IMG/VR virus record: IMGVR_UViG_3300028394_000045
Coordinates: 1 to 64,000 of that record
Origin: a virus
Reading direction: 5' to 3' (one strand)
DNA length: 64,000 nucleotides
Of this stretch, positions 8,523-25,746 are shown one piece after another. The translations under genes were made by a program, and so were the position numbers. The notes beneath the pieces were generated by a model. That model was given only the letters and a program-made list of their open reading frames with translations, was not told the origin of the DNA and ran no database searches. The number at the start of each line of letters is the position of its first letter. Within the stretch, counting starts at the first letter, position 1.

Positions 8523-8527
8523 GAAGA

Positions 8528-8535
8528 TATTTATA
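8528..8535 (-). promoter_or_regulatory. Late promoter TATAAATA, 5 nt before ATG
   Basis: A perfect match to the T4 late -10 element on the minus strand, separated by TCTTC from the ATG at 8522. The predicted start point is the A of the ATG, giving a leaderless message for the GT8-like gene. Confidence 0.65.
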
Positions 8536-8543
8536 GGCGTAGA

Positions 8544-8996: not shown

Positions 8997-9274
8997 TAAT
9001 TTTCCCAGTCGTCTTCGCGATAGTCTTCTTCTGCATCAATGCCATCATCTTCATCGTCATCATCTGTGTATGATTTATCGTTGTCAAGATACGCTGTGAG
9101 AGCTCGTTTGATGTCTGCATCGCCTTTGAATGTGTCTTTGATATCATCTACATCACAGTCGTTGTCGATCAAGATGGCCACCACTGTCTCTGCTGCTTCA
9201 TTGCGATCCACTGTGTTCACATAACGCTTGAGTTCTGACCACAATTCGCTGGCCACTGCTACTGCTTCACTCAT
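8996..9274 (-). CDS. Small acidic protein between uvsX and uvsY
   Basis: A 92-residue protein of unknown function. The N-terminal 65 residues are predicted helical (RNEAAETVVAILIDND, DDIKDTFKGDADIKRAL); the C-terminal 25 are almost all Asp and Glu, which could mimic DNA or bind a basic partner. It starts in an ATGA overlap with uvsX and ends in a TAATG overlap with uvsY, so the three are made together, and it may assist in filament assembly. I do not recognise a named family. Confidence 0.75.
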   Translation of the reverse strand: MSEAVAVASELWSELKRYVNTVDRNEAAETVVAILIDNDCDVDDIKDTFKGDADIKRALTAYLDNDKSYTDDDDEDDGIDAEEDYREDDWEN

Positions 9275-10326
9275 TCTGCTGCCTCCTCGATGGTACTTAC
9301 CTCTTCTTTGTGATTTCCAAAATCTGCCATGGCACGATCCAAACAGCCTTCTTCATTGGCTTCCCACTTCTTGCGGAACTTCTTGATGATCTCACCATCG
9401 CTGGTCACAAACACCAGACTGTTGCCTTCCTTCTTTAAGAGATTGCGTTTCTCCATGAGATCCACCATGCCGGAGAAAGGACTCATTCCTGTTTCATAAG
9501 GAATCTTGACCTGCACACCTTCAAACGGTTTGGCATAGCGTGTTTTCATCACTTTGCAGGCAGCACGGATACCCATCACATCAGTGATCTTGTTGCCGTC
9601 TTCATCTTCTTTCAGCTTGAGTTTCTTCATGGCCACAACAATTGAGCTGGCATAGATGAAACCTTGACCGCCGGAGATCTTGTCATCGGGATCAAACATG
9701 TCTTGACTTGCGTATGTGTGGTTGGTACAGACCAGGCCCACATTGTAGCTACCAAACATGTTCACACAGTTACGCACAAGACTGGTCAGTGCCTTGGGCT
9801 TGCGACCCATGTCACCTTTCATGTCGCCTGCATCAAACTGATTCACATCAGTGGGTGTGAGCAACATGCCCAAGCTGTCAATCACAAACATTACTTTAGG
9901 TCGCTCACCGTCGGGCAGGGCCTTGTAGTCGCTCATGAATGTACTGATGGTTTTGGCCACATCGTCGATCATGGCCATGCTGAGTTTAAGCAGTTTGTCT
10001 TGACCGGTATCCACACCCAATGCTTTGAGCCAATCCTCGTCCAGTGCGTTCTCGCTGTCGATCAACACCACATAGATACCCTGTGCTTGGGCGTTCTTGA
10101 TGATGTTGCCAGAGCAGATATAACTTTTACCTGCGCCAGATTCACCGGCAAACACAGTGACCTTGCCCAGAGGAATACCTTTGTTGAAGTCGCCGGAGAT
10201 GAGATAGTTCAAGGCATAGTTGCCTGTGGAGATCCAGTCTGTAGGATCGTTGAAACCAATGCTCAATCCTTCGATTGACTTGGTGATTTCCTTGCGGAAT
10301 TTTGAAACGTCAAAAGGTTTACCCAT
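9271..10326 (-). CDS. uvsX: UvsX RecA-like recombinase
   Basis: A 351-residue RecA-superfamily strand exchange protein. Walker A is GESGAGKS (61-68), Walker B is VMFVIDSLGML (about 145-155), and ISGGQGFIYASSIVVAMKKL corresponds to the L2 and following strand region. The acidic C-terminus (STIEEAAE) is typical. It catalyses homologous pairing with UvsY and gp32. A ribosome site AGGTAA precedes the ATG at 10324-10326, and a strong hairpin terminator separates it from gp32, so uvsX has either read-through or its own start. No clear promoter was found in the short gap. Confidence 0.95.
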   Translation of the reverse strand: MGKPFDVSKFRKEITKSIEGLSIGFNDPTDWISTGNYALNYLISGDFNKGIPLGKVTVFAGESGAGKSYICSGNIIKNAQAQGIYVVLIDSENALDEDWLKALGVDTGQDKLLKLSMAMIDDVAKTISTFMSDYKALPDGERPKVMFVIDSLGMLLTPTDVNQFDAGDMKGDMGRKPKALTSLVRNCVNMFGSYNVGLVCTNHTYASQDMFDPDDKISGGQGFIYASSIVVAMKKLKLKEDEDGNKITDVMGIRAACKVMKTRYAKPFEGVQVKIPYETGMSPFSGMVDLMEKRNLLKKEGNSLVFVTSDGEIIKKFRKKWEANEEGCLDRAMADFGNHKEEVSTIEEAAE

Positions 10327-10351
10327 ATATTACCTGTTATGAAATGAAAGA

Positions 10352-10376
10352 ACACAGAGGGGTTGCCCCTCTGTGT
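10352..10376 (-). terminator. Terminator between gp32 and uvsX
   Basis: A perfect 11-bp stem (10352-10362 with 10366-10376) and a 3-nt loop lie just after the gp32 stop; on the minus strand the hairpin is followed by the pyrimidine run TTCTTTCATTT. It should end most gp32 transcripts and so lower uvsX expression relative to the abundantly needed gp32. Confidence 0.8.
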
Positions 10377-10383
10377 GGTGCTA

Positions 10384-11367
10384 TTACTTGTTCTGACGAG
10401 AACGGATCATAGCCAGGATGTCCTGGGTCTTGCTATCACCGGCAGGCTTGGTCACTGGAGCAGTGGCCACTGCTGGCTCATCGTCAAAGTCATCTGCTGC
10501 CTTGGCAGGTGCTGCCACTCGCAAAGCTGGCTTGGGAGTGTCTTCATCCACATCAACAGCAGGTGCTGCGCCAGCAGGTGCATTCACACCAGCAGGGCGG
10601 AAGTACTGACCCCAACGCTCTGTGTCGTAAGGCTGTCCATCTACTGATGCTTCGAACATTTCCTTGATCACACGCAGTTCCACGTCAGTGGGCTTCTTGG
10701 GTAAGAAAGTGTTCAAGTCAAACAGGCCATGTGCATCCACTGCTGCTTGTTCCACATCAGTCAATGCAGATTCTTTACGAGCCCACTTGCTGCTGTTGTA
10801 GTCAGCGAATCCACCTTTTTGTGTTTTGCTGATACGGAAGTCCAGGCCGCTCATGTAGTCAGTTGGCAGGTTTTCCAACTCAGGATCCATCAACGCACCT
10901 TTGATCAAGGTGAATAACTGTGGTCCAATGATGAACTTGCGAATGGGATTTTCTGGAGTCTTGTCGTCTGCGATGGGATTCTCACGCACGAATCCTTGAA
11001 AGATGTAGCTGCGTTTTTTCCAGTACTTGCGACCCATATCTTCAAGACTCTTGTCCTTGAACCAGGTACGCACTTCTGCCAAGATTGGGCAGGCGTCGCC
11101 CCACATCTCCACGCAAGGTACCTGTACCATGACCTGTTTGGAATCCATCTCACCTTTGACGCCATTGAATGGCAGTCGGATCATGGCTCGTTCCACCCAG
11201 AAGAATGTGTTCTTGGAATTGCCGTCGGGTAAAAAGCGCAGGGTGGCTGATTGACCTTCTTCCATATTCCAATGTGGATAAATGGATCTGTCACCGCCTC
11301 CAGTGGATTGCCCACCTTTGTTCTCTGCTGCCTGTAGTCGTGCTCGGATTTCTGCTAAAGTTGCCAT
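10384..11367 (-). CDS. gp32: gp32 single-stranded DNA-binding protein
   Basis: A 327-residue homologue of T4 gp32 (301 aa). The basic N-terminus (ATLAEIRARLQAA) would serve cooperative self-binding; the OB-fold core holds aromatic and basic residues such as YPHWNMEEGQ, FFWVERAMIRLPF and KKRSYIFQGFV; the C-terminus is acidic and disordered (DDFDDEP), the part that binds partners in T4. The T4 zinc site needs His-x12-Cys-x8-Cys-x2-Cys; here only a Cys-x7-Cys pair (PCVEMWGDACP) remains, so zinc binding of the T4 type is doubtful. A 190-nt structured and AT-rich upstream region suggests regulated synthesis. Confidence 0.93.
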   Translation of the reverse strand: MATLAEIRARLQAAENKGGQSTGGGDRSIYPHWNMEEGQSATLRFLPDGNSKNTFFWVERAMIRLPFNGVKGEMDSKQVMVQVPCVEMWGDACPILAEVRTWFKDKSLEDMGRKYWKKRSYIFQGFVRENPIADDKTPENPIRKFIIGPQLFTLIKGALMDPELENLPTDYMSGLDFRISKTQKGGFADYNSSKWARKESALTDVEQAAVDAHGLFDLNTFLPKKPTDVELRVIKEMFEASVDGQPYDTERWGQYFRPAGVNAPAGAAPAVDVDEDTPKPALRVAAPAKAADDFDDEPAVATAPVTKPAGDSKTQDILAMIRSRQNK

Positions 11368-11404
11368 ATTGTGTTGCCTTTCTATGCTTTAATATGATTA
11401 AAAA

Positions 11405-11410
11405 TATTTA
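11405..11410 (-). promoter_or_regulatory. AT-rich gp32 leader with TAAATA
   Basis: The minus-strand leader of gp32 (about 11368-11435) is nearly free of G and C and includes TAAATA at 11405-11410. GGCAACACA occurs twice, at the ribosome site (next to 11374) and again near 11425-11433. T4 gp32 represses its own translation by cooperative binding to an unstructured A/U-rich leader; this leader has the same character. Confidence 0.4.
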
Positions 11411-11441
11411 AGATTAACTTAAATGTGTTGCCTACAAGGTT

Positions 11442-11470
11442 ATTATACACAGCCTTGTCTGTGTTTGCTA
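11442..11470 (-). promoter_or_regulatory. Possible promoter of gp32 with overlapping palindrome
   Basis: TATAAT at 11442-11447 on the minus strand with a poor -35 (TAGCAA) at 17-nt spacing. An ACACAG/CTGTGT inverted repeat (11447-11464) fills the spacer and a second one, GCTACC/GGTAGC (11467-11483), lies on the -35. They may be an operator or RNA hairpins. Confidence 0.4.
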
Positions 11471-11509
11471 CCTTTACGGTAGCGAAATTTGCCTATCTAG
11501 TTGCTTACG

Positions 11510-11535
11510 GAAGTGTGTGCCACTGCACACCCTTC
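11510..11535 (-). terminator. Hairpin after the 1257-residue gene
   Basis: GTGTGC/GCACAC (11515-11530, loop CACT) extends by a GAAG/CTTC pair across one mismatch. It lies about 20 nt past the stop at 11556. There is no U run on the minus side; on the plus side a T-rich run follows, so it could be bidirectional. CATAAATA at 11548-11555 (minus) could be a late promoter reading towards gp32. Confidence 0.4.
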
Positions 11536-11555
11536 TTTTGTTTGTTTTATTTATG

Positions 11556-14500
11556 TTATCTAATCAAAGCCAAGGATTTTATTCTTGCCAGCAATGCATC
11601 ACCTTCACGTGATTCGTAATTGAGCGAACGTCCGGATTCGTCCATGCTATCGCCCGGCAAGTCACGTGTGGTAATATCCGGAGACCGAACTGGCATGGCC
11701 ACTGCTCCTGTGTCTTTACGACCAAGTCGTGCTGTTTCAGCATCGCTTTGATCTGGTTCTTCGTCGCTGTAGTCATAACCTCTTTGACCGGCAGTTGGCC
11801 GCTTTGGCTGTTCAGGTGCTTTGCCGTTGTATCCTTGTTTTACACCTTTGAAGAAATTGCTTATGGGCTCAGAGATGTTGTCGGCTGTCTTGCCAAGGAA
11901 ATCACGTGCTGAGCGGGCTGCTTGCCCTACCACATCGCCGACATCTGTCATGTCTTCATCTATGCCATAGGCATTTTTGAACAGGTCCTGATTGTCTTGC
12001 ATGCTGTTTTGTGCGTCAATGGTTGCACCTTTGCTTTTTTGTGCTCTGGTGTAGCCGGTTGGCGAGTAGTCATTTGGCATGGCATCTCTTTGAAACTGGC
12101 CAAATCCTTTTTGAACATTCTGATCATGATTGAAAGACTTGAGCAGGTCTGCATCTGACTGTGGTGCCCATGGGATCTCAGGATACCGTTTGTTCCAGAC
12201 TTTCATGTTTCCCTGTTCCCGATCGCGGGCTGCTTGTAGCAATGGAAAATCAGGATGCTCTTCGGGATACTTGATTGCGCGGGGAGGAGGTGGGCCACGC
12301 AATGCGCTGACTTCGGGTTCTGCCTTGAACAAACTCTTCACAGCATTCGCTGCCTTGCCGCCTAATTCACCTGCGCCCCGAAGTGCTGCACCCATGCCTG
12401 GCATGCCGCCTTCATCCAGGTCTTCGATCAGCCGAGAGCCAGTGGCCAGGATGCTGAGATTCATTTCCTCCAACCAGCACTCTTTTAGGCCATGCACAGG
12501 GCAGTAGTTGTTTTCCATGGTGTAGTTGCACTCTTCCAAGGGCGCACTTTCTTCCAGCCCGGCAGATATTTCAATGCGTGGGATTCCGTCGGCAGTGTAA
12601 GATACGGATGGACTGGTTAGGTTGTTGTCAGGCATCTGTTGTTGCATGCGTGTTATTCTGTCTCTTTGATCTTGCGTCATCTGATCCCGTGCAGCCATAC
12701 GCATTATCCTATCTCTCTGAGCTTGGGTGTCACTGGACATGCCGGTTGCTGCCGGTTGGCTATCTTTGTAATCCCACTGTGGCTCATCAATTGCCAACTC
12801 TGGATTCTTTATCAGATCGACTGCTTTGACTGTTCTTGGTGCTATTGTTGGCAGGCCTGCAGCCGTTTTCATAGCATCCAATGGGTCTGGCTCTGTCTGC
12901 TGCTTGGTTAGATCAAGGGCAGCAACACGGCGAGCATCCGGGGAGGCTAATGGTGTGGGAGTGACCTGAAATCCTTTAGGATTACGACGCATTATTTCAG
13001 ACCGAGCTTGATCCTCTTCCACGGGTGCGGGCTTGGCCAGGCTTCGAGTGGTTGCCCCGCTGGGCAAGACATTGTTCTTTAATGAATTAAAAGCATTAGG
13101 GTCTGCTGGCGCAGGTGCTGCTGCCGGAGCAGGTGGGGGCGGTGCCGAGGCATTAGGTTTGCCGGTCAATCGATTGATACCCGGAGCAAGATTGGTCGGG
13201 GCTCCACCGGCAGTGGGGCCTGTGTATTCTGCTGCCGGAGGCGGTGCTGATTTGGGCACAAACTGACCACCGGTGGCATCTTTCACTGCTTGCTGCACAG
13301 CAGGGTTGGTGCTGGCACCAACCACTGGTCCTGCTGCCGGTGATGTTGTGGGCGTGGGTCTAATGGTCAATTGCCCAGTGGAAAGCGCATCAGCTGGCAG
13401 CGGTTGAGTAGCAGCAACTTCTGGATATTTGCTGGGATCGCTCGGTGGTGGAAATTCGCCCTCGGCTTCGTCTATCATGTCATTTGTGCCATGCTGTGCA
13501 TAGTGATAGAATGAATTGGCCACATCACCTAAAAAATCTTCATCATTGATTAAATTCATAGCAGACTTTGGTGTCATTCCCAACGCAATCATTTCGGGAT
13601 AAACTGCTTGAACAAATTGATCAGAATCCACATCCAACATGGGCTGTTTCTGTGCCAGTGTTTTACCAATTTTTTCATACATGAATTCACTGGATTCTTC
13701 AATGCGAGATTCTTTCAGTGGCACACCTGCCAAATGGCGCATGCGTTGAAGGCTTTCAAAGGTGCTGATGTTGTCGGCTTCATTTGTATCCTTACCAACA
13801 AAAAATCGAGAATTACTTGGCGGATTTTTTGTAAGGAATTGCGAAGCGATATCATCGTCTTGTGTGACAGTGACTTTGTGCATGCCTCGACTATCAGGGC
13901 CTGTGACACTGGCTGTTCTTTCTCGAAAATCTGGGCCAGTAGTTGTGCGTTGCCCGCCAACTCTTGCGTCCATCGGTTGCCCAATTTTTTGGAAATTTGC
14001 TATGCGATCATCTTGATCTGGATCATCCATGTTTTCGTCTGGAGATTGATCTACAAATTCTTCCGCCATTGCCTGTTGTGGCCGAGCGTCCATGTCAGGT
14101 GCAGCACGGTCAGGCATCTGTATGCCCAGTGCCTGCAATATGTCTTGTACTTCGGTGTCATCCCATAAATTGGCATCGGGATCTTGTGCAGCCAAATCTT
14201 CAATACGGTTGAACAAATCATCATCACCGATGATATCACGCAGTTGCTCTTTGGCATTGGTACCGTCTGGTCCCACGATCAATTCGCCACTCATGAGTGT
14301 TTTGAGCTTGTTCAGTTGTTCCGGAGTTTCGGGCAGGTTCCAGTGGCTTTCTGTCACGCTATTCACCCAGTTTTCAAATATGTCAGCTTCTTTCATTTCA
14401 CGTCCTCGTTGTATTTTTGCCAACAGTGGTAGAGCTTGCTCAATCCTGTCGTCAATGGTCTGTTCTACGAACAGTGTTTTGATATCTTCTACCAATTGGT

Positions 14501-15329
14501 CTTGTTCTGTGATGTCCGCAGGATGCCAAGATTCAAAGTAAGCAGCATAGCCACGTGGGCTGCTTAATCGCTTGATGTTTTCTCTTAGGGATTTGTAGTA
14601 GGTTTGCGCACCTTGTACCACACCTTGAGTGATGCCTTCTAACACACGCCCTTGGCTGGCACGATTGAAACGTGTGAGCACCTTGAGCTCTGTGATCATT
14701 TCACAGATGTGATTGCCACGCACGTCATAGGGCTTGCCACCTTGACGCACATGTTCCAGCATGGCTCGGCCGCCGGCTAGATTTGTGAATGGCAGTCGAT
14801 ATCGCTCGCCATCTGCTGTTTCCACAAAGATGCTTTCTACATAACGGAAACGTGCATCAGTCTCGCCCAGATTACGATTGTGTCGGATCATCAATCTTGC
14901 TTCAGTGGGCTCGCCTGCATAGCTGATTCGGCGTGTGCCATAATAGCCTTCAAACAACCCTTCTTTGATGGCTGCTAAGCCTTGCATGGTGTGCTTGAGC
15001 TGTCCCAGATCTTTGGCAGTGTATGTGTAACGATGTGCATTGGCAAACTGGCTCAGGTGCTGCTGGAAATCAAAGAATTCTTCTTTGTCATTGCCTTCCA
15101 TGGTACGACCCAGATTGTCGCCGTAGAATGCTTTTAGATCGTTGTCTGAATCCAGTATGACCACCATGGTGCCGTAGTTTTTACCAGTGCCGCTGATGTA
15201 GTCAAATGTGAATGTTTTGGCATCTTCGCTGTCGCAGACCTTGCCTTGTGCATCCAGCATGTCCGGATGGAAATTGCGTGTGACCAACAGGTCATTCAGT
15301 TGCTGCGCGATATTGTTTTGTTGTGCCAT
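11556..15329 (-). CDS. Large probable virion protein, disordered C-terminal half
   Basis: A 1257-residue protein of no family I recognise. The first 390 residues look folded (strands around TFTFDYISGTGKNYGTMVVIL, then helices); the rest is rich in Pro, Ala, Asp and Gln and probably disordered. Within it are the motif FESLQRMRHLAGV (near 550), shared with the protein at 22612-25131, and a compact Cys/His cluster CNYTMENNYCPVHGLKEC (near 965) that may bind zinc. It starts 7 nt behind a TAAATA element directly after gp17, so it is a late gene and likely a structural or internal head protein. This rests on context; no function is claimed. Confidence 0.8.
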   Translation of the reverse strand: MAQQNNIAQQLNDLLVTRNFHPDMLDAQGKVCDSEDAKTFTFDYISGTGKNYGTMVVILDSDNDLKAFYGDNLGRTMEGNDKEEFFDFQQHLSQFANAHRYTYTAKDLGQLKHTMQGLAAIKEGLFEGYYGTRRISYAGEPTEARLMIRHNRNLGETDARFRYVESIFVETADGERYRLPFTNLAGGRAMLEHVRQGGKPYDVRGNHICEMITELKVLTRFNRASQGRVLEGITQGVVQGAQTYYKSLRENIKRLSSPRGYAAYFESWHPADITEQDQLVEDIKTLFVEQTIDDRIEQALPLLAKIQRGREMKEADIFENWVNSVTESHWNLPETPEQLNKLKTLMSGELIVGPDGTNAKEQLRDIIGDDDLFNRIEDLAAQDPDANLWDDTEVQDILQALGIQMPDRAAPDMDARPQQAMAEEFVDQSPDENMDDPDQDDRIANFQKIGQPMDARVGGQRTTTGPDFRERTASVTGPDSRGMHKVTVTQDDDIASQFLTKNPPSNSRFFVGKDTNEADNISTFESLQRMRHLAGVPLKESRIEESSEFMYEKIGKTLAQKQPMLDVDSDQFVQAVYPEMIALGMTPKSAMNLINDEDFLGDVANSFYHYAQHGTNDMIDEAEGEFPPPSDPSKYPEVAATQPLPADALSTGQLTIRPTPTTSPAAGPVVGASTNPAVQQAVKDATGGQFVPKSAPPPAAEYTGPTAGGAPTNLAPGINRLTGKPNASAPPPPAPAAAPAPADPNAFNSLKNNVLPSGATTRSLAKPAPVEEDQARSEIMRRNPKGFQVTPTPLASPDARRVAALDLTKQQTEPDPLDAMKTAAGLPTIAPRTVKAVDLIKNPELAIDEPQWDYKDSQPAATGMSSDTQAQRDRIMRMAARDQMTQDQRDRITRMQQQMPDNNLTSPSVSYTADGIPRIEISAGLEESAPLEECNYTMENNYCPVHGLKECWLEEMNLSILATGSRLIEDLDEGGMPGMGAALRGAGELGGKAANAVKSLFKAEPEVSALRGPPPPRAIKYPEEHPDFPLLQAARDREQGNMKVWNKRYPEIPWAPQSDADLLKSFNHDQNVQKGFGQFQRDAMPNDYSPTGYTRAQKSKGATIDAQNSMQDNQDLFKNAYGIDEDMTDVGDVVGQAARSARDFLGKTADNISEPISNFFKGVKQGYNGKAPEQPKRPTAGQRGYDYSDEEPDQSDAETARLGRKDTGAVAMPVRSPDITTRDLPGDSMDESGRSLNYESREGDALLARIKSLALIR

Positions 15330-15336
15330 GATTGTT

Positions 15337-15342
15337 TATTTA
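15337..15342 (-). promoter_or_regulatory. Late-type TAAATA element, 7 nt before ATG
   Basis: TAAATA on the minus strand in the 16-nt gap between the gp17 stop and the ATG at 15329, with no Shine-Dalgarno sequence. Confidence 0.5.
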
Positions 15343-15345
15343 GTT

Positions 15346-16929
15346 TCAACGCATGATAGAGATGAATGGCATGGGTTCGATTATGACGTCGCCATGATCC
15401 TTGAGATGTGTGTCCAATTCGGTGTGATATGTCTGCAACATCACCAACATACGCACGGCCAGCAATGTGGCCATGACCAAGTCATCAGTTTCTCCGGGTT
15501 TGGCAGCAAAACTAGTACCATGTGCCACAAATGTTTTTAGTTCAGAAATCAGCGGCCTGCTCTGTATCTTCATCCTGCCGGATTCTATCAGGATCTTGAC
15601 CTTGTTGCAGGCCATGATTTTGCTTTTGTTTGTGGTGGTAAACCCCTTGCGGATCCTGCGTCCTGCTGTGCCCTGTACTGAATTGTCGCTGAGAAAGTAG
15701 CCCGGAATGTTTTCTTCACCGTATTCTGCAATAGAAATCAACGCTGCTTCACCCAGTGTGTTGTTTTCCACTGAATAGTAAATTTTGCTAGCATCTTTTA
15801 CTACCGCATTGATTTCTTTAATGATGTCTGCTAGTATTTTGACTTGGGTAGGCACATCTGTACGATCATGCCGCCACTCTGCCACTTGTATGGTGGTGTC
15901 AGCTTCGAATACCTGGATGGCACTGGGGTCACCGCCTGTTCCCAGGCTGGGATCCAATGAGACAATATACATCTTGTCTTTTTTGGGTTCTTGGTACCAT
16001 CGCACCTGCCCGGTCTTACGCAAGGGCTCAATACCTTCAAGATCCAATAATTTGATTGGAGAGATCAAGGTTTCGTCATTGATAATGAATTCGCAACCCA
16101 TCTCTCGACGGAAACGTTCTTCGCCCAGAGCTGCACGTTGTTGATCGGCCCAGGTGGTGTCACGATCAGGATGCTCATTCCAGTAGCTGCGAAATGCTCT
16201 GAATCCGTTAGTGCCCAACACAGTTTGATTGCCGTATTCATCCACTGTTTTGTTGGCACCTTTCCACAAGAAAGCAAACTGATCTTCGTCTGAGTTGGGA
16301 GTGCTTGTGATGATGGCTTTACCACCTGTGGCCAGTGTGGGTGATATTGAGGTCCAGAATTCTTTGGCAATAGTTGGACGAACAAATGCAAACTCATCGC
16401 AGTACAGCAGCGAAATACTCATACCACGACCGGTATTTTCTGTAGTGGTAGCACTAACAATACGACTGCCGTTGTCAAATTCCAAACTGCCTTTATTGTA
16501 GCTGGTTGCACCTGCACGTATGTGATTAGGGCACAGCTCATAGGCATAGCGAATACGTTGCATGATCTCTTGAGCACCTGTGTATTTGTGTGCAGCAATC
16601 AACACAGTGCTGTCAGGCACAAACATGGCATACCACAACAAGTAACCAGCAGCTGAAGTTGATTTGCCTGTTTGCCGAGGCATCATGCTGATGCTGTATC
16701 TGTAGTTGTGGTAGGTACCAATCAGTCTCTCTTGATATTCAAAAGGAGAATATCGCATCTTGCCACGAATAGGATGTTGAATGTAGAAAAAATGATCCAT
16801 GAAGTACAATGGACCGGTCACGGGATCAGCACACAGCATGAATTCTGTGATCTCCTGCTCGGTATAAGTCTCGCGACGATGCGGAGCCTTGACCAACACG
16901 GTTTCTAAGTTATTTTTTGGCAATATCAT
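15346..16929 (-). CDS. gp17: Terminase large subunit gp17
   Basis: A 527-residue packaging motor. The ATPase half has Walker A PRQTGKST (84-91) and Walker B SLLYCDEF (173-180). The RNase H-like nuclease half shows its acidic sites at VSLDPSLGTGGDP, YYSVENNTLGEA and TDDLVMATLLAV. It docks on the portal (gp20), pumps DNA into the prohead and cuts concatemers. It is somewhat shorter than T4 gp17 (610 aa), lacking part of the N-terminal extension. The ATG at 16927-16929 lies inside the end of the SGNH-like gene, so gp17 is the last gene of the operon that begins with the radical SAM genes. The partner small subunit is at 25767-26264. Confidence 0.95.
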   Translation of the reverse strand: MILPKNNLETVLVKAPHRRETYTEQEITEFMLCADPVTGPLYFMDHFFYIQHPIRGKMRYSPFEYQERLIGTYHNYRYSISMMPRQTGKSTSAAGYLLWYAMFVPDSTVLIAAHKYTGAQEIMQRIRYAYELCPNHIRAGATSYNKGSLEFDNGSRIVSATTTENTGRGMSISLLYCDEFAFVRPTIAKEFWTSISPTLATGGKAIITSTPNSDEDQFAFLWKGANKTVDEYGNQTVLGTNGFRAFRSYWNEHPDRDTTWADQQRAALGEERFRREMGCEFIINDETLISPIKLLDLEGIEPLRKTGQVRWYQEPKKDKMYIVSLDPSLGTGGDPSAIQVFEADTTIQVAEWRHDRTDVPTQVKILADIIKEINAVVKDASKIYYSVENNTLGEAALISIAEYGEENIPGYFLSDNSVQGTAGRRIRKGFTTTNKSKIMACNKVKILIESGRMKIQSRPLISELKTFVAHGTSFAAKPGETDDLVMATLLAVRMLVMLQTYHTELDTHLKDHGDVIIEPMPFISIMR

Positions 16930-17659
16930 CTATTATCTTTTCTGCAAACAACCTATGACCCAAGGGGCCGGCATGCATGCGATCTCTTGCGTATTCTATT
17001 TCTTCACGACTTTTGGCAAACCAATCATGTGCGTTGTAGGTCAAACATTTGATCCCCAGTTCAGCACATAGTCCTTGCACAGCCAATCGGTTACGCGAGT
17101 TATTTAACTCAGCGTTGCGATCATTTAAAAACCAATTCTTGATAAAATCGTTGGTCTCGGTTCGCCCCGATTCGTGTCCGGGCATGTATGTTTCGTGTGG
17201 TAGTGCTCGGTCTTCAGTTATGAGATCAAATCTATGCCGGGGTGGTGCTGCCATCACCACCCATCGGGGGCGCAGTACCGGCAACCAATAACTGGCCAAC
17301 ATAAAACAAGTATCTGCACTAACGCCGCCCCAGGCAAGATTGTAGTTTTTTAGTCCTGTGGCTTGAGACACTAGGTAGGGCCATGTAGTGTTTTCTGGTA
17401 AGCCGATACCAATGGTGTAGCTGCATCCTAAAGAAACCATGCTGGCAGCGGCGGGATCAAATTCTTCAGATCTGAATCCGTTGCTGTTTATTTGATAAGT
17501 TATAGCGCCTGGTTCGAGCCATCCTTTGCTGCGATAATACTCGTGATATTCAGGATTTTGATTCAATCGTTGGAAATTTTCTTCGGTATCAGTTGGCAAC
17601 CAGGATACTGTTTGTCCAGCATACTTCATACCAAAATGCCAAGGTGCTTTAATTTTCAT
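16910..17659 (-). CDS. SGNH/GDSL-like hydrolase or acyltransferase
   Basis: A 249-residue protein from ATG 17657-17659, which overlaps the end of the radical SAM gene; an ATG 12 nt further upstream is also open. SGNH blocks are visible: SLGCSYTIGIGL around residue 80 (nucleophile Ser), NLAWGGVSADT (Gly and nearby polar residue) and RDRMHAGPLGHRLFAEKI near the C-terminus with the catalytic Asp-x-x-His spacing. Such enzymes remove or move acyl groups on polysaccharides, lipids or peptidoglycan. Its position after two radical SAM genes and an oxygenase, and before gp17, links it to a late modification task. A second SGNH-like protein is at 34011-34781. Confidence 0.65.
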   Translation of the reverse strand: MKIKAPWHFGMKYAGQTVSWLPTDTEENFQRLNQNPEYHEYYRSKGWLEPGAITYQINSNGFRSEEFDPAAASMVSLGCSYTIGIGLPENTTWPYLVSQATGLKNYNLAWGGVSADTCFMLASYWLPVLRPRWVVMAAPPRHRFDLITEDRALPHETYMPGHESGRTETNDFIKNWFLNDRNAELNNSRNRLAVQGLCAELGIKCLTYNAHDWFAKSREEIEYARDRMHAGPLGHRLFAEKIIDDIAKK

Positions 17660-18809
17660 TAGCGTTCTCATTTAATATAGTTGCCGTTGCGGGCCATAGA
17701 TCTGCAAAGCTAATTGATTTTTTTAACAATGCTTCGGTTCTAGTGTGCCAGGTCACGGTGCGTTTTGCGATGTCATCCTGATGTTTAATGTAATCGGGAT
17801 TTTCCAATGTGCGTCTATAGCTTTTTAACACATGTGTAGATAAGTTTATACGATCATCGTAACGATCAATGATGCGATCTATCTCTTGTATGGCCAATTG
17901 TCGTAATTGTAACGAATGCCGACGAATGTCCAATTCAACAGGATCATTGAGCTCACACCAATATATGCCTAGATTTTCTTTGTTGCAAAATTCATAATAT
18001 TCTTCAAGATCCAATGCACAATAGATAGAATACGCAGGATGGGCATTTACTCTTAGTCCATCTTGTTTCATCTGACGTATATTCTTTACAAATTGTGCCC
18101 AGTTGGCCCCGTCCCTGACATATTCAAATTTTTGCTCGTTGGCATTGTCAAAACTGATCTGCCATTCAACATCAGGCCAGGTGCGCAACAATTGATAGAT
18201 AGGATTTTTAGTGATTTCCATGCTGAGATTTGTTGTGACCATCACACGTACTTTGTCAGGATTTAGATAACTTAAAAATGTATCTAGACCTTTCTGTAGT
18301 AACGGCTCTCCACCGCCGAGACTGAGCCCTTGTATGTTGTGCCCTTGTGTTTTTACCAGCTCTATTAAATCCTCGTGGGCGTTTTTCACATGATTAATAG
18401 GTATCTTTCGAACACTCTGCCATGCAGTTGATGTTTGCGGATTGCAATACACACAGGTCAGATTACATAGATTGCTCCAATTAACCACAAGATGTTCTAG
18501 TTTAAAAAAATCTGGATCGCTGTTGATTGCTGCCAAAGTATCTTCACTCACAATTCTCACAGTCCTTCCACTAGCACCGGTAGTATCTTCCAGCCGCTTG
18601 CACCAGGTGCATCCAGAGTGCCATTCACCTCGTGACATTGCCGATCGCATGGCGGCGGCAACGGGCCCATGTATAATTTCTTGTATGGGTGTTTTTTTGT
18701 TATTACCAATCATTTCCACGCAATGGAAGCATGGGCTGACCGCGCCAGCTTGATCGATGTTGAGACTGGTCCAAGGTGCTGGACAGAATGTAGGACTATC
18801 AGAAATCAT
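17649..18809 (-). CDS. Radical SAM protein with Cys-rich N-terminal twitch/SPASM-like part
   Basis: A 386-residue radical SAM enzyme. The cluster motif is CNLTCVYC (C115, C119, C122); GGGEPLL (near 160) is the SAM-binding glycine motif. Unusually the auxiliary cluster cysteines (C9, C27, C30, C67, C70) precede the radical SAM core, as in phage proteins called twitch-domain radical SAM proteins. Such enzymes abstract hydrogen with 5'-deoxyadenosyl radical and often modify peptides or sugars. It starts in an ATGA overlap with the Fe/2OG-like gene. It is related to, but not close to, the protein at 19351-20493. Substrate unknown. Confidence 0.85.
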   Translation of the reverse strand: MISDSPTFCPAPWTSLNIDQAGAVSPCFHCVEMIGNNKKTPIQEIIHGPVAAAMRSAMSRGEWHSGCTWCKRLEDTTGASGRTVRIVSEDTLAAINSDPDFFKLEHLVVNWSNLCNLTCVYCNPQTSTAWQSVRKIPINHVKNAHEDLIELVKTQGHNIQGLSLGGGEPLLQKGLDTFLSYLNPDKVRVMVTTNLSMEITKNPIYQLLRTWPDVEWQISFDNANEQKFEYVRDGANWAQFVKNIRQMKQDGLRVNAHPAYSIYCALDLEEYYEFCNKENLGIYWCELNDPVELDIRRHSLQLRQLAIQEIDRIIDRYDDRINLSTHVLKSYRRTLENPDYIKHQDDIAKRTVTWHTRTEALLKKSISFADLWPATATILNENANEN

Positions 18810-19360
18810 TTTGCCACCAACCAGGAATAAGAACTTACTCTAAAAGAGTTGTTGGGTACAGGATTCAGCATGCCATGCCATTGTAATTTTCTGTAGCCAA
18901 TTGAATCTGGGGTGTTTATCATAATATATCCTGTGTTAGTCACAAACTCAAAAACGTGCCGTATGTGATCTGGATCTTTATACTGATACCATGTGGTACC
19001 GATATCAGGAGAGGATCCAATCCAATATAATTGTATGGCTCCCGGTAACTCTCCATCAGTGTGCAAGGGGCATGTGTAGGTGGCCATGTCAATCCAAAAT
19101 CCAGTATCTAAATATTTTAAATGCTCGCATCCAGTTTGTTCTGCTATGTGGTCCCATTGGGACTTTATGCTGTCATGCCAGCTGCTGATCCAACTCAATT
19201 GGTTGTTATTGATTCGTTTTCTTAATTCTCTATTGCCTTCTTCTAATGTGTAATCCAAACTCAGCCAAGGTGTTTGTAGTATCTGTTCAACCAATGATTT
19301 GGGCATGAGGTCAGTCACATGGAACAGATTCTGATCTTGATCGACCGCAGTTATTTGCAT
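18806..19360 (-). CDS. Putative Fe(II)/2-oxoglutarate-type oxygenase
   Basis: About 184 residues from ATG 19358-19360, which overlaps the upstream stop by 10 nt. The facial triad pattern is present: HTDGEL (H100, D102), then QWHGMLNP (H162) and a downstream Arg in NSFRVSSYSW (R174) placed to hold 2-oxoglutarate. Such enzymes hydroxylate proteins, sugars or small molecules and are common in T4-like aquatic phages. The gene is sandwiched between two radical SAM genes with overlaps on both sides, so all three are made together and may act on one substrate. The assignment rests on the motif and size. Confidence 0.65.
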   Translation of the reverse strand: MQITAVDQDQNLFHVTDLMPKSLVEQILQTPWLSLDYTLEEGNRELRKRINNNQLSWISSWHDSIKSQWDHIAEQTGCEHLKYLDTGFWIDMATYTCPLHTDGELPGAIQLYWIGSSPDIGTTWYQYKDPDHIRHVFEFVTNTGYIMINTPDSIGYRKLQWHGMLNPVPNNSFRVSSYSWLVAK

Positions 19361-20493
19361 AAGTGTGCCAACTCCGGCCATAATTTCACAAACCCACCTG
19401 ATTGGTCTGTGTGATACACATGCTCAATGTTGTGTATATGTTGTTGAAATTGATTTGAAATTTCAGGATTGACTGATTTTACTTGTTGATATGTTGCCAG
19501 TGCTTGATCAAAAAACTGCTGCTCTGCTGCGGTAGCAATGCCCAATGCATAAAATCGTTCAATCTCTTGAGTAGCCTGTACTGCTATCTCGGGTCCATGC
19601 AAAGTGGGATCTAGATATTCGGGCTGGAATAAACTCTGCCAGAGTACGCTAACTCCTGCTTGTTCAGCAAATTGTCTCAACTCACAGATGCGTGTGGCAT
19701 TGTAGATATTATATACCGCATGTATTCCGCCCCAATGCCCCTGTGTGTGCATGAGTTGTTTGATCTTGAGAACATTTTGTTTGATTTGATCCCAGGTGGC
19801 TCCGTGACGCACATATTCCAGTTGGGCACCGATGTTGTCAAAGCTCATGCTCCAGCCTACTCGATTGCGTTTGGATAGTTTTTGGAATATCTTGTTGTTG
19901 TCTAGATCCACGCTCAAATTTGTGATCAAGGTCACGATGGCATTTGCTGGTATTACATCCAACAATCGATCGTTTTCGGGTAGCATGAGTGGCTCACCAC
20001 CTACTAGTGCCACTTCATGTATGCGATCGTGGTGTTGCGATAGGAAGTCACACACTGATTCATAATAAGGTCTCGTGCCCGATTTAGCTGCGATACCTTT
20101 GATCGACGCCCACTTTGAACTGCATGCTTCTCCGCAATAGTTGCAGCTGAGATTGCAGGTGGTATTCCATCGTACATCTACTATCACAGGATAGTGATAT
20201 TGATCCCCAGCTGTGGCATAGTCAAAGTCGGTATTGACATCATTGTGCCAGGCACGTTCAGAACGGCCGCCAAATCTTTCGGCATTGACACAATTGGAGC
20301 AATACTCGTGTGCTTGCCCTTGAGACAAACTACTGCGTATGTGTTTCATCTGGCTGCTGTTGAGGATTTCGATTATACCATGCTGATTCAAGTTGCCCAG
20401 CATGTTAGGATTGCCAGCACAACAGGTTTTGACATCACCACGTGGATTGATATGCAGCCCACGCCATGGGGCTGCACAATAGAAATCGGTCAT
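19351..20493 (-). CDS. Radical SAM protein with Cys-rich N-terminal twitch/SPASM-like part
   Basis: A 380-residue radical SAM enzyme. Core motif CNLSCNYC (C113, C117, C120) and VGGEPLM (near 165) for SAM binding. Cysteines C6, C24, C25, C65 and C68 in the N-terminal part (FYCAAPWRGLHINPRGDVKTCC) would hold an auxiliary iron-sulfur cluster. The layout is the same as in the enzyme at 17649-18809, so they are paralogues of a shared architecture. It is the first clear gene of the block that ends with gp17; the 33-nt gap before it (20494-20526) shows no promoter, so it may be read from further upstream. Confidence 0.85.
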   Translation of the reverse strand: MTDFYCAAPWRGLHINPRGDVKTCCAGNPNMLGNLNQHGIIEILNSSQMKHIRSSLSQGQAHEYCSNCVNAERFGGRSERAWHNDVNTDFDYATAGDQYHYPVIVDVRWNTTCNLSCNYCGEACSSKWASIKGIAAKSGTRPYYESVCDFLSQHHDRIHEVALVGGEPLMLPENDRLLDVIPANAIVTLITNLSVDLDNNKIFQKLSKRNRVGWSMSFDNIGAQLEYVRHGATWDQIKQNVLKIKQLMHTQGHWGGIHAVYNIYNATRICELRQFAEQAGVSVLWQSLFQPEYLDPTLHGPEIAVQATQEIERFYALGIATAAEQQFFDQALATYQQVKSVNPEISNQFQQHIHNIEHVYHTDQSGGFVKLWPELAHLCK

Positions 20494-20526: not shown

Positions 20527-21342
20527 TTAATCGTCTGATGCACCACACTTGGCGCGTTTGGCTCGGGTGAGCGCACCAAAATCCACTGCCCATTCTTTAC
20601 CCGGTGCCAGTTCTACTGCACCCGGAGGAAACGCAAACTCTACACCAGCTGAGTTCTCGATCATATCAATGGGCAGTCGGAATCGGGTTAAGTCATTGCC
20701 TAGATTAGGATATGGTGCTAGATGTGGGAATGCCCATCCGGCTATTTCCCGGGTCTTGTTGTTGATAACAATCTTGTAAAAGCCATTTGGTACTATCACT
20801 CCCTTTCCAATTTTCTTGCTTGACGCATCATATGTGCTGCCGGCGATGATGGTATATGTTTGATTGTGCTGCACAGCCCAACCACGCACTGATGTTTCTA
20901 GCAATTTCCAGATGCCGCGGTTCAAGCTGCCGGCTTGTGGGCTCATGTTGGTCATCAAGAAACTTTCGTATTCCACCTGTTGATCCCAGCTGAGATCGCC
21001 GTCTGGTGCCATGTGTCCTTTGTCATATCCTGTGCCAGCATAGTCATCGGGTGTGGCCCCATTGGTAATGCTTTGATCCACTGCAAAAGCATTAGTACGA
21101 GCAACACAACCCAGTGCGTTGGGCGGAGTGAGTGTGTAGGCCACATAGTTAGGGATTTTGGCCTGTGCGTCGTAGGCCACAAGATATGCTTGACGACAGA
21201 TGGGTTGCAGTTGGCGTTCAGTTTTTGCAAATCCATATGGTTGATGCACTCGGCACATGGGCAACGGATTCGCCGGGCGTTGAGTCCAGGCCTGTGCCAG
21301 ATTAACGGCTGCGAGCAACAGTACCAAGAGTAGTTTTTTCAT
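20527..21342 (-). CDS. Exported DNA/RNA non-specific endonuclease (NucA family)
   Basis: A 271-residue protein with a clear signal peptide (KK followed by LLLVLLLAAVNLAQA, predicted cleavage near residue 18). The NucA/Serratia nuclease signature is GYDKGHMAP with catalytic H110, and NRGIWKLLE supplies the metal-binding Asn141 and helix Glu149. The mature enzyme would cut single- and double-stranded DNA and RNA with Mg2+. The signal peptide points to the periplasm or outside, which is unusual for a phage nuclease. Six or more cysteines would suit disulfides there. No ribosome site is obvious before the ATG at 21342. Confidence 0.88.
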   Translation of the reverse strand: MKKLLLVLLLAAVNLAQAWTQRPANPLPMCRVHQPYGFAKTERQLQPICRQAYLVAYDAQAKIPNYVAYTLTPPNALGCVARTNAFAVDQSITNGATPDDYAGTGYDKGHMAPDGDLSWDQQVEYESFLMTNMSPQAGSLNRGIWKLLETSVRGWAVQHNQTYTIIAGSTYDASSKKIGKGVIVPNGFYKIVINNKTREIAGWAFPHLAPYPNLGNDLTRFRLPIDMIENSAGVEFAFPPGAVELAPGKEWAVDFGALTRAKRAKCGASDD

Positions 21343-21349
21343 GTTAAAA

Positions 21350-21730
21350 TTAATAACCTTTGAAGGGCCGGACTGGGCTGGTGTGATTTACTGATGCAGG
21401 TTCTAAGCTGTTTGGCGTGCTTATTTGTACTTTTTTAGCAGGCAAGCCAGCCATTTTCAATGCTTGATCAATCACTGGTTCAACGCTGGCATTAAATCCT
21501 GCAATTACTGCATCTTCACCAAATGCTGCTTGTGCAGACCAGGCAGGTAGTTTGTCGGTGATGCCATCTGTTCCGGCATCACTTCTGGCACGGGCCATAG
21601 CCACACCCAGTCTGTAGATCTGATATGGGTCGCTGGATTTTACTCCAGGCAACACAAACACATGATTCATGGGATCTGCTTGCTCCGGAGGTAAAGTTTT
21701 TTCTTCGGTTATAAACTCTCGAGCTCTCAT
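21350..21730 (-). CDS. Unknown protein with T4 internal-protein-like N-terminus (tandem copy 2)
   Basis: A 126-residue protein. The start MRAREFITE closely resembles the capsid targeting peptide of T4 internal proteins (MKTYQEFIAE) and contains an I-x-E site for the gp21 protease. The C-terminus SPVRPFKGY matches SPVQAFRGY of the gene upstream, so the two are tandem paralogues; the middle (YQIYRLGVAMARA, AGLPAKKVQI) also aligns loosely. It starts in an ATGA overlap with copy 1. I infer a packaged internal head protein, but the function is not known. Confidence 0.7.
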   Translation of the reverse strand: MRAREFITEEKTLPPEQADPMNHVFVLPGVKSSDPYQIYRLGVAMARARSDAGTDGITDKLPAWSAQAAFGEDAVIAGFNASVEPVIDQALKMAGLPAKKVQISTPNSLEPASVNHTSPVRPFKGY

Positions 21731-22098
21731 CTGTAACCCCGGAATGCTTGTACAGGGCTAGTGGTGTTGGTGCTGGGCAATTCTAAACTGCGGAGATCGC
21801 CTTTGTTGAGATCCTGGATGTCGGAACCAATGGCCTTGTAGGCCATATTCAGCATGTTTTGTTCTTCCGGCGTATAAGGTGCTGCAATGTTGTATCGACC
21901 GGCCCAGGATTCACCATCTATATCAGGCACAAAGGTGCCATCGGTGCTGGCGGCAGCCATCATGATGCGATTTAATTCATACACACGATCAGCATGGTTT
22001 GGATCAACAAATTTGTTCAAGCCCACAGTGGCAAAACTTTTGGTCTTGCTCAATCGGCCAATCTGCTGACCTTCGGCAATGAATTCACTGGCACGCAT
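21727..22098 (-). CDS. Unknown protein with T4 internal-protein-like N-terminus (tandem copy 1)
   Basis: A 123-residue protein beginning MRASEFIAEG, with the I-A-E that T4 gp21 would cut. The middle has ADRVYELNRIMMAAAS and AGRYNIAAPYTPEEQNMLN, and the end SPVQAFRGYR recurs in the next gene. Copy 1 and copy 2 are divergent in between. It lies 9 nt after the small beta-rich gene. As for copy 2, an internal or capsid-associated role is inferred only from the N-terminal peptide and the surrounding late genes. Confidence 0.7.
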   Translation of the reverse strand: MRASEFIAEGQQIGRLSKTKSFATVGLNKFVDPNHADRVYELNRIMMAAASTDGTFVPDIDGESWAGRYNIAAPYTPEEQNMLNMAYKAIGSDIQDLNKGDLRSLELPSTNTTSPVQAFRGYR

Positions 22099-22106
22099 GG
22101 TATCTA

Positions 22107-22436
22107 TTAAGACGCGCCGGTCACACCTGCTGTGGCTGATGTTGCTGATCCAATTGCTGTGGCAGTAAAACCGCCTGTACCGGTCAAGATGTTGAGATAA
22201 TTGCCTGCACCCACATAGTATTCTTGACTGGAGTTGCCGGGCAAAGCGATAGCATTGGCATACAAGTTGCCAGTGGAGATTGGCATGGCAGCATTGGTGG
22301 GAACACCATTGGCCTGTATATAAGTCAGTTGTACTGCACTGACCTGGAATGTGACATTGGACAGCGTGGTATTAAACTGCACTTTGTCAGTGGTCCATAA
22401 CACATTTCCTATAGCATTTACAACTTGAGTGGCCAT
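22107..22436 (-). CDS. Small Gly/Ala/Thr-rich probable structural protein
   Basis: A 109-residue protein rich in Ala, Gly, Thr and Asn with alternating beta-type patterns (NTTLSNVTFQVSAVQLTYIQ, GNYLNILTGTGG). It has no charge clusters or catalytic motifs. The composition is that of a surface or decoration protein, but I do not recognise a family. Its ATG overlaps the stop of the 56-residue gene (TAATG), so it is translated with it. Confidence 0.65.
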   Translation of the reverse strand: MATQVVNAIGNVLWTTDKVQFNTTLSNVTFQVSAVQLTYIQANGVPTNAAMPISTGNLYANAIALPGNSSQEYYVGAGNYLNILTGTGGFTATAIGSATSATAGVTGAS

Positions 22437-22606
22437 TATGACTTATCCTTGGGAACTTCTGTCACCACCGGCTGATACAGCTGGCGTGACTGGTGTAACA
22501 CACCTGGAATCTCCACAGGCTGTGGTTTCCAACTGGCAGCGGCCGGACTATGCGGATTGTGCTGTGTGGGTGTGTTGAGATTTTCGTTGTATGGTTTGTA
22601 TGACAT
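22436..22606 (-). CDS. Small 56-residue Pro/Gln-rich protein
   Basis: A short gene filling the gap between 22436 and 22612. The ATG (22604-22606) follows an AAGGAT ribosome site by a few bases, and the TAA overlaps the next ATG (TAATG). The protein begins MSYKPYNENLNTPTQ and ends VVTEVPKDKS; it is rich in Pro, Gln and Asn and probably unstructured. The tight fit at both ends is the main support. Function unknown. Confidence 0.65.
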   Translation of the reverse strand: MSYKPYNENLNTPTQHNPHSPAAASWKPQPVEIPGVLHQSRQLYQPVVTEVPKDKS

Positions 22607-25137: not shown

Positions 25138-25746
25138 TTATCCTCTTGGGTTGGCGCCAGTGGCTGGCTTGGGCGGACGCTTGACGTTGGTCATTGGGCT
25201 TTTGTTTCCCATTGGCAACTCATTTGTGGTTTTGGCTGGCGGTGTTTTGTTGCCAGCGATGGTGAAGTTTGAACGATAGGCATTTTTCAATACCGCATGA
25301 TCATATGGACCTGTGGCATAGTCTTTGCTGAGTGCTCGTTGTTCTGCATCAGGTGCAGGATAGTCTGGCTTGTCCAACAGATCCTTATTTTCGCTGCCAA
25401 TCTTGCGGCTTTCGTCATTCATGCTGTCTTCGTATGGTACGGTGTTCATGACGATCCTGTTGGGATCCATGCCCAGTAGTTGTGCCAGCTGTTTGATCTG
25501 TGGTTCAATAGCAGGATAACGAAACTCCACATCCACGATGCTCATGGGCTGATTGGGGAACGCCGGAAAGTCTGGGATCTCTTTGCGCACTGGTGCAGTC
25601 TTGATCTTTGACATCTTGACCACATCAAACTGTGCCAGTTTGCCTTCCAGCTCTTTGACGAACATTGAAGGCACATCACCTACCATCTTGATCCGATAGT
25701 TGTAGGTTTTTTCGCTTTCAGTTAGGTATTTTGCAAATGGTTTCAT
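25138..25746 (-). CDS. Conserved-type late protein of unknown function
   Basis: A 202-residue protein. Residues 14-105 look like a compact alpha/beta domain (TYNYRIKMVGDVPSMF, SIVDVEFRYP, IKQLAQLLGM); the rest is extended and Pro/Lys-rich. The first residues MKPFAKYLTE again resemble an internal-protein targeting peptide with an L-T-E cleavage site. An AGGACA ribosome site precedes the ATG at 25746, and an AATAAATA element lies at 25764-25771. A late, possibly capsid-associated role is inferred. Confidence 0.7.
   Translation of the reverse strand: MKPFAKYLTESEKTYNYRIKMVGDVPSMFVKELEGKLAQFDVVKMSKIKTAPVRKEIPDFPAFPNQPMSIVDVEFRYPAIEPQIKQLAQLLGMDPNRIVMNTVPYEDSMNDESRKIGSENKDLLDKPDYPAPDAEQRALSKDYATGPYDHAVLKNAYRSNFTIAGNKTPPAKTTNELPMGNKSPMTNVKRPPKPATGANPRG

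What the first reader, a model, noticed from the sequence alone, without database searches (positions are those of the whole stretch)
16910..20493. Two radical SAM enzymes flanking an Fe/2OG oxygenase, with an SGNH hydrolase, in the terminase operon
Gene order radical SAM, oxygenase-like, radical SAM, SGNH-like, gp17 with overlaps at every junction. Both radical SAM proteins have auxiliary cysteines before the core, and the oxygenase-like protein has its His-x-Asp...His and Arg. Together they look like a peptide or sugar modification system made with the packaging motor. No small precursor peptide is obvious nearby; the 56-residue gene at 22436-22606 or the small proteins at 21350-22436 are possible substrates.
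Basis: partly seen in the sequence, partly recalled or inferred. Interest (0 to 1): 0.72.

Follow-up and report, generated by a model that had tools for sequence, protein, structure and literature searches.

The report
Phage radical-SAM tailoring cassette beside terminase
Just before its DNA-packaging motor gene, a large freshwater phage and its many uncultured relatives keep a small assembly line of oxygen- and radical-chemistry enzymes, probably used to decorate a sugar or a virion part; what it makes is unknown and can be tested.

Summary
Five overlapping minus-strand genes run radical SAM A (rA), Fe/2OG oxygenase (ox), radical SAM B (rB), SGNH-like protein, T4-type TerL. rA and rB belong to NF033640 (N-terminal twitch radical SAM). 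ox matches no Pfam, NCBIfam or PHROG family, but its model (pLDDT 92) folds as a 2OG oxygenase, with His107-x-Asp109, His169 and Arg181 invariant in 42 homologues. All cluster cysteines are invariant. In 79 non-redundant relatives with a complete nuclease-to-TerL interval the gene order is never broken. rA is in 67 and alone in about 14; ox, rB and SGNH come and go, so the set is modular. rA is fused in frame to ox in two contigs and to the SGNH domain in one, strong evidence of shared work. No precursor peptide gene fits, and the 56-residue gene is missing from rA-carrying relatives. Sugar chemistry is favoured: relatives add a GDP-mannose-3,5-epimerase inside the slot, and Vibrio phages K566/K567 interleave the same radical SAM family with family-8 glycosyltransferases. 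The record carries nine such radical SAMs above cut-off; relatives give up to 21 matches and often encode their own Fe-S assembly proteins. Substrate and product remain undetermined.

The parts
20527..21342 (-). Secreted DNA/RNA non-specific endonuclease; upstream boundary of the variable slot, replaced in many relatives by a secreted staphylococcal-nuclease-like protein
   Evidence: PF01223 143.6 bits; swap seen
19351..20493 (-). rA: N-terminal-twitch radical SAM enzyme, 380 aa, central gene of the cassette
   Evidence: NF033640 219.7 bits over cut-off 170; C6, C24, C65, C68 and C113xxxC117xxC120, GGEP 165-168 invariant in 61 homologues; present in 67 of 79 slots
18806..19381 (-). ox: Fe(II)/2-oxoglutarate oxygenase, 191 aa, no sequence-family match; true start may be Met8
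   Evidence: H107, D109, H169, R181 invariant in 42; AF2 pLDDT 92; the PDB hits shown are 2OG enzymes
17649..18809 (-). rB: second N-terminal-twitch radical SAM enzyme, 386 aa
   Evidence: NF033640 203.0 bits; C9, C27, C67, C70 and C115xxxC119xxC122 invariant in 24
16910..17671 (-). SGNH-like protein, 253 aa
   Evidence: Lipase_GDSL_2 19.6 bits, below gathering; S84, G116, D230, H233 conserved in 54, block III Asn not
15346..16929 (-). T4-type terminase large subunit (gp17); downstream boundary of the slot
   Evidence: PF03237 59.5 bits, PF17289 28.5 bits, phrog_36964 372.7 bits

Best explanation
The slot between a secreted nuclease gene and TerL holds a modular tailoring cassette. Shown: rA and rB are complete N-terminal-twitch radical SAM proteins, ox is a complete Fe/2OG oxygenase, the genes form one tightly overlapping operon in fixed order, and rA is physically fused to ox or to the SGNH domain in some relatives. 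Inferred: rA carries out a committed radical step (such as dehydrogenation, epimerisation or C-C/C-O rearrangement) on a sugar, nucleotide-sugar or glycan substrate; ox hydroxylates or epimerises the product; rB makes a second radical change; the SGNH-like protein adds or removes an acyl group. The finished unit most likely decorates a virion surface part (fibre, head decoration) or a host-surface glycan, and different phages carry different subsets and alleles, giving different end products. A protein or peptide side chain as the direct substrate is the main alternative.
For: Enzyme identities and intact catalytic residues. Order unbroken in 79 non-redundant slots; ox occurs only with rA (29 of 29, p=0.0029), rB nearly only with SGNH (18 of 19, p=3.5e-5). 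In-frame fusions rA::ox (L069, L071; identical 564-aa product in two metagenome contigs) and rA::SGNH (L150, 618 aa). Sugar link: GDP-mannose-3,5-epimerase in the same slot in L017-type relatives (phmmer 6.5e-91 to solved GME; PF01370); in Vibrio phage K566 four N_Twi-type radical SAMs interleave with two GT8 glycosyltransferases above Pfam cut-off; the record's second cluster of five radical SAMs adjoins a carbamoyltransferase and an amidinotransferase of the AGAT/StrB1 type. The auxiliary domain aligns with the twitch domain of BtrN, which acts on an aminocyclitol (substrate from general knowledge). Alleles of rA and ox are swapped between close relatives: dS 1.2-1.3 against 0.4-0.5 in flanks, dN/dS 0.10 and 0.27, as expected of a surface trait kept functional.
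Against: No glycosyltransferase or sugar-nucleotide gene lies in the window's own slot. The 344-aa and 330-aa accessory proteins that look like glycosyltransferases hit no family, and the model of one failed (pLDDT 52). The same A3 profile also hits the peptide-modifying SkfB, more strongly than BtrN. rA alone is common, so no downstream step is obligatory. Nothing shows that the product reaches the virion.
Confidence: 0.45

Rival explanations
1. Protein or peptide modification: rA and rB act directly on a virion or scaffold protein in trans (RiPP-like chemistry without a dedicated precursor), ox hydroxylates a side chain, SGNH trims or acylates.
For: Radical SAM enzymes with SPASM/twitch domains are often peptide maturases (general knowledge); profile hits SkfB; ox resembles viral collagen prolyl hydroxylase vCPH and PolD in fold; genes lie in the structural operon; Bdellovibrio MAG L204 has an N_Twi array beside a 1424-aa fibre-like protein.
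Against: No conserved short ORF in the slot; candidate small proteins persist without rA or are absent with rA (p56); fibre-like genes upstream are present or absent irrespective of rA.
Confidence: 0.3
2. Small-molecule or cofactor metabolism in the infected cell (auxiliary metabolism), unrelated to the virion, such as an aminocyclitol- or PQQ-like compound.
For: Six of ten tested relatives encode IscU and A-type Fe-S carriers and one encodes S-adenosylmethionine synthetase; amidinotransferase and carbamoyltransferase elsewhere in the record; a T4-like marine contig with 12 radical SAM genes was read as Fe-S metabolism (PMC5332604), and radical SAM genes in a Baikal phage as PQQ synthesis (PMC7678222).
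Against: Does not explain the fixed place beside TerL or the allele swapping; rA is not PqqE-like by family score.
Confidence: 0.15
3. DNA base hypermodification coupled to packaging.
For: Position beside TerL; radical SAM and 2OG enzymes both occur in known phage or other DNA modification (general knowledge).
Against: ox is nearest by fold to small-molecule and prolyl hydroxylases (AlkB-type DNA repair enzymes appear lower in the list); no other hypermodification gene was identified, though none was searched for systematically; the cassette varies in gene content between close relatives.
Confidence: 0.05
4. Anti-host or defence-related radical chemistry of the viperin type.
For: Weak viperin-family scores (32-36 bits).
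Against: Curated cut-off is 180 bits; profile architecture is N-terminal twitch, unlike viperin.
Confidence: 0.02

Closest known systems
NF033640 N_Twi_rSAM (twitch domain-containing radical SAM protein)
   Same: rA and rB pass its curated cut-off over nearly the whole model, with four Cys before the core
   Different: The family is defined by sequence; no function was found for it in the papers searched. Here two members flank an oxygenase at a fixed place beside TerL, and rA occurs fused to other domains
BtrN (2-deoxy-scyllo-inosamine dehydrogenase, twitch-type auxiliary cluster)
   Same: The N-terminal auxiliary region of the profile aligns with BtrN's C-terminal twitch domain; Cys spacing C-x17-C-x40-C-x2-C resembles it (recalled)
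   Different: Domain order is reversed; substrate of rA and rB unknown; match is weak (E 0.0016)
T4-like environmental phage TARA_ERS488813_N000010 with 12 radical SAM genes (PMC5332604)
   Same: Large T4-like phage with many radical SAM genes and its own Fe-S assembly gene
   Different: That paper groups them as Fe-S metabolism; no terminase-adjacent cassette is described in the passage read, and the sequences were not compared here
Vibrio phages K566 and K567 radical SAM/glycosyltransferase cluster
   Same: Radical SAM proteins of the N_Twi type, interleaved with GT8 glycosyltransferases
   Different: Only 23% identical to rA; not next to TerL in the stretch read; no ox or SGNH recognised there
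Viral collagen prolyl hydroxylase vCPH and PolD (2OG oxygenases)
   Same: Same fold and facial triad as ox (Foldseek E about 1e-5 to 1e-6)
   Different: 10-18% identity, TM about 0.6; substrate cannot be inferred

Membership tests
N_Twi_rSAM (NF033640) | Whole-protein score over curated cut-off 170 bits | tested here: met
   219.7 (rA) and 203.0 (rB)
N_Twi_rSAM (NF033640) | CxxxCxxC core and four-Cys auxiliary domain on the N-terminal side | tested here: met
   invariant in 61 rA and 24 rB
N_Twi_rSAM (NF033640) | Clusters assembled and SAM cleaved | not testable with these tools
   needs purified enzyme
Fe(II)/2-oxoglutarate oxygenase superfamily | HxD...H facial triad and 2OG-binding Arg conserved | tested here: met
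   H107, D109, H169, R181 invariant in 42
Fe(II)/2-oxoglutarate oxygenase superfamily | Double-stranded beta-helix fold | tested here: met
   pLDDT 92; 230 PDB matches E<=0.001, the 50 shown all belonging to the superfamily
Fe(II)/2-oxoglutarate oxygenase superfamily | Match to a named sequence family (Pfam, NCBIfam, PHROG) | tested here: not met
   no hit; this is not required for superfamily membership, which rests on fold and residues
SGNH hydrolase | Block I Ser, block II Gly, block V DxxH | tested here: met
   S84, G116, D230, H233 conserved in 54
SGNH hydrolase | Block III Asn and Pfam gathering score | tested here: not met
   no conserved Asn in that block; 19.6 bits against 32.9
RiPP biosynthetic cluster | Small precursor gene co-occurring with the radical SAM gene | tested here: not met
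   gaps usually 15-38 bp, no conserved short ORF in the slot; p56 absent from rA-positive loci
RiPP biosynthetic cluster | Peptide substrate modified | not testable with these tools
   needs assay
Glycan-tailoring cluster | Sugar-nucleotide or glycosyltransferase genes with the radical SAM genes | tested here: inconclusive
   GDP-mannose-3,5-epimerase in the slot of some relatives, GT8 in Vibrio phages, none in the window's own slot
Viperin | Score over NF038283 cut-off 180 | tested here: not met
   32-36 bits
T4-type TerL (gp17) | Terminase_6N and Terminase_6C domains | tested here: met
   59.5 and 28.5 bits

The most novel reading that the evidence does not exclude
A phage lineage runs a combinatorial radical-chemistry assembly line: a near-universal radical SAM step encoded beside the packaging motor, optional oxidation, second radical and acyl steps that are gained, lost, fused or allele-swapped in fixed order, plus a second conserved five-enzyme radical SAM cluster next to the fibre genes, supported in relatives by phage-encoded Fe-S assembly. 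Its product would be an undescribed sugar or virion modification specific to each phage.
Probability: 0.35. Interest if true: 0.87.

Novelty: new variant of a known kind. Interest (0 to 1): 0.66.

Why it matters
NF033640 radical SAM enzymes are abundant in large aquatic phages, yet no function for them turned up in the papers searched. A fixed, modular cassette with natural fusions gives a small, testable system (rA alone, rA::ox, rA::SGNH) for finding the substrate of the family. If the product decorates virions, it would mean that phages use oxygen-sensitive radical chemistry to build or vary their surface, with consequences for host recognition and for reading phage 'auxiliary metabolic genes'.

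Tried and rejected
Precursor peptide in or next to the cassette: rejected. The conserved 116-aa protein in the second cluster as a precursor or carrier: no hypervariable core and no match in the phage collection, left open. Fibre-like genes upstream as obligate partners: rejected, they vary independently of rA. Accessory 344-aa protein as glycosyltransferase by fold: model too poor; by PDB profile and PHROG: no hit. A profile of nine paralogues for a genome scan was too diverse, so a narrower one was used, which found only three records. T4 late-promoter motif TATAAATA: not enriched and none near the operon; sigma-70 and terminator scans no better than shuffles. Vertical co-inheritance of rA with TerL: not supported (Spearman 0.10, permutation p 0.09). 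Two slots first scored as 'rA rA' were mislabelled ox genes and were corrected. Literature searches for a described rSAM/2OG/terminase cassette found none.

Full report
What is there. The window is bases 1-64000 of a 151,644-base virus record. On the minus strand five genes overlap one another: rA 20493-19351, ox 19381-18806, rB 18809-17649, an SGNH-like gene 17671-16910 and TerL 16929-15346. Overlaps are 31, 4, 23 and 20 bp. A secreted Endonuclease_NS gene (PF01223, 143.6 bits) lies 33 bp upstream of rA. The coordinates and gene order of the finding are right.

Enzyme identities. rA and rB pass the curated cut-off of NF033640, twitch domain-containing radical SAM protein (219.7 and 203.0 bits against 170). 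Cys6, 24, 65, 68 and the core C113xxxC117xxC120 of rA are invariant in 61 homologues; the corresponding cysteines of rB are invariant in 24. ox matches no Pfam, NCBIfam or PHROG family, but in an alignment of 42 homologues H107, D109, H169 and R181 are invariant. Its AlphaFold model has mean pLDDT 92, and Foldseek finds 230 PDB chains at E up to 0.001, the 50 shown all members of the 2OG-oxygenase superfamily, led by PolD, a Shewanella oxygenase and viral collagen prolyl hydroxylase. The SGNH protein keeps S84, G116, D230 and H233 in 54 homologues but has no conserved block III Asn and scores below Pfam's threshold; it is SGNH-like only.

Spread and order. A scan of IMG/VR with rA gave 190 relatives, of which the best 80 were kept (69-80% identical besides the window's own copy); the SGNH gene gave 23 loci and ox 5, the last because ox diverges faster and single-protein patterns reach only close relatives. 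A TerL-anchored scan gave 80 more loci. After joining all loci, 136 have the whole interval from the upstream nuclease to TerL; 79 are non-redundant. rA is in 67, ox in 29, rB in 19, the SGNH gene in 43, and the order is never broken. ox is only found with rA in these slots, and rB is found with the SGNH gene in 18 of 19 cases. Fourteen slots hold rA alone and a few are empty. Many loci were fetched with rA or SGNH as the query, so the rA and SGNH frequencies are biased upward, and the counts come from relatives of this phage and are not independent events; the p-values are only indicative. In the nearest cultured relatives (PA5oct group, TerL 54.7%) the slot is empty: a structural gene directly precedes TerL.

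Fusions. In L069 and L071, contigs from two metagenomes, rA and ox form one 564-residue protein (rA residues 1-380, ox 382-560). In L150 rA continues in frame into an SGNH domain (618 residues). This is the strongest evidence that these proteins work on the same thing. The L069 and L071 products are identical, so they count as one event; the L150 fusion rests on one contig.

Boundary and swapping. The slot is bounded upstream by a secreted nuclease that is either of the Endonuclease_NS kind or a 145-residue staphylococcal-nuclease-like protein (the latter named from its sequence), also in most relatives without rA. In the closest relative (L095), DNA identity is 91% in the nuclease and TerL but 78% in rA and 67% in ox; dS is 0.40-0.47 in those flanks, 1.22 in rA and 1.34 in ox, while dN/dS stays at 0.10 and 0.27. 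Distances of rA do not follow those of TerL (Spearman 0.10, p 0.09). The plain reading is replacement of alleles in place, with function kept.

Sugar or peptide? For sugar: relatives of the L017 type carry, between the SGNH gene and TerL, a GDP-mannose-3,5-epimerase (phmmer 6.5e-91 to solved structures), a second SGNH-like protein and a protein of unknown family. Vibrio phage K566, the only named-phage match of rA besides its sister K567, has four radical SAM genes of this type interleaved with two family-8 glycosyltransferases above Pfam's cut-off (two of the four pass the NF033640 cut-off, one is just below it and the fourth was tested against Pfam only). The window's own record has a second cluster at 114.5-123.4 kb of five such radical SAM genes, preceded by fibre-like genes (identified from their sequence) and followed by a carbamoyltransferase and an amidinotransferase; the same cluster is conserved in four relatives, mostly at 63-76% identity. 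For peptide: the family resembles peptide maturases too, with SkfB scoring above BtrN, and a Bdellovibrio MAG has an array beside a fibre-like gene. Against a dedicated precursor: no conserved short ORF in the slot; the 56-residue gene is absent in rA-positive relatives; the other small genes persist without rA. I favour sugar, at 0.45, over protein, at 0.30.

How many radical SAM genes. NF033640 finds nine genes over cut-off in the record (ten matches) and 9-21 matches in most large relatives; none of 14 well-known control genomes has one over the cut-off. Six of ten records tested also encode IscU and A-type Fe-S carriers, and one encodes S-adenosylmethionine synthetase; the window's record has none of these, but it may be incomplete. 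A marine T4-like contig with 12 radical SAM genes and an A-type carrier was reported before (PMC5332604), so the abundance itself is not new.

Limits. Substrate, product, timing and virion location are inferred. rA, rB and the SGNH protein were not modelled. All relatives with the cassette are metagenome contigs. The host is unknown.

Noticed in passing
window 20527-21342; L016 7545-7982 and others: The gene upstream of the slot is nearly always a secreted nuclease, but of two unrelated kinds (Endonuclease_NS or staphylococcal-nuclease-like) that replace each other at the same place.
   Followed up: partly
L118 (record bases 108000-127500), 6445-15452: Five more N_Twi radical SAM genes in one cluster, preceded by fibre-like genes and followed by carbamoyltransferase and amidinotransferase genes, conserved in order in L199-L202.
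   Followed up: partly
L117 1215-7926 (record about 69-76 kb): A radical SAM gene sits between genes that look like recombination gp46 and gp47, with two aminotransferase-like genes and another radical SAM gene downstream.
   Followed up: no
window 21350-21730, 21727-22098 and 25138-25746: N-termini MRAREFITE, MRASEFIAE and MKPFAKYLTE recall T4 capsid-targeting peptides cut by the prohead protease; these may be internal head proteins.
   Followed up: no
L203 7662-17444 and L204 5015-10701: Tandem N_Twi radical SAM arrays in MAGs of unnamed and Bdellovibrio-type bacteria, in L203 flanked by respiratory-chain and ATP-synthase genes; one such genome has 26 matches.
   Followed up: partly
L119 12286-13230: The phage encodes a protein that reads like a periplasmic tripartite-tricarboxylate (Bug) binding protein, a possible hint at a betaproteobacterial host.
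   Followed up: no
G001, G002, G004, G009, G010, G016: Related phages carry IscU and A-type Fe-S carrier genes, often adjacent; G010 also has a methionine adenosyltransferase.
   Followed up: yes
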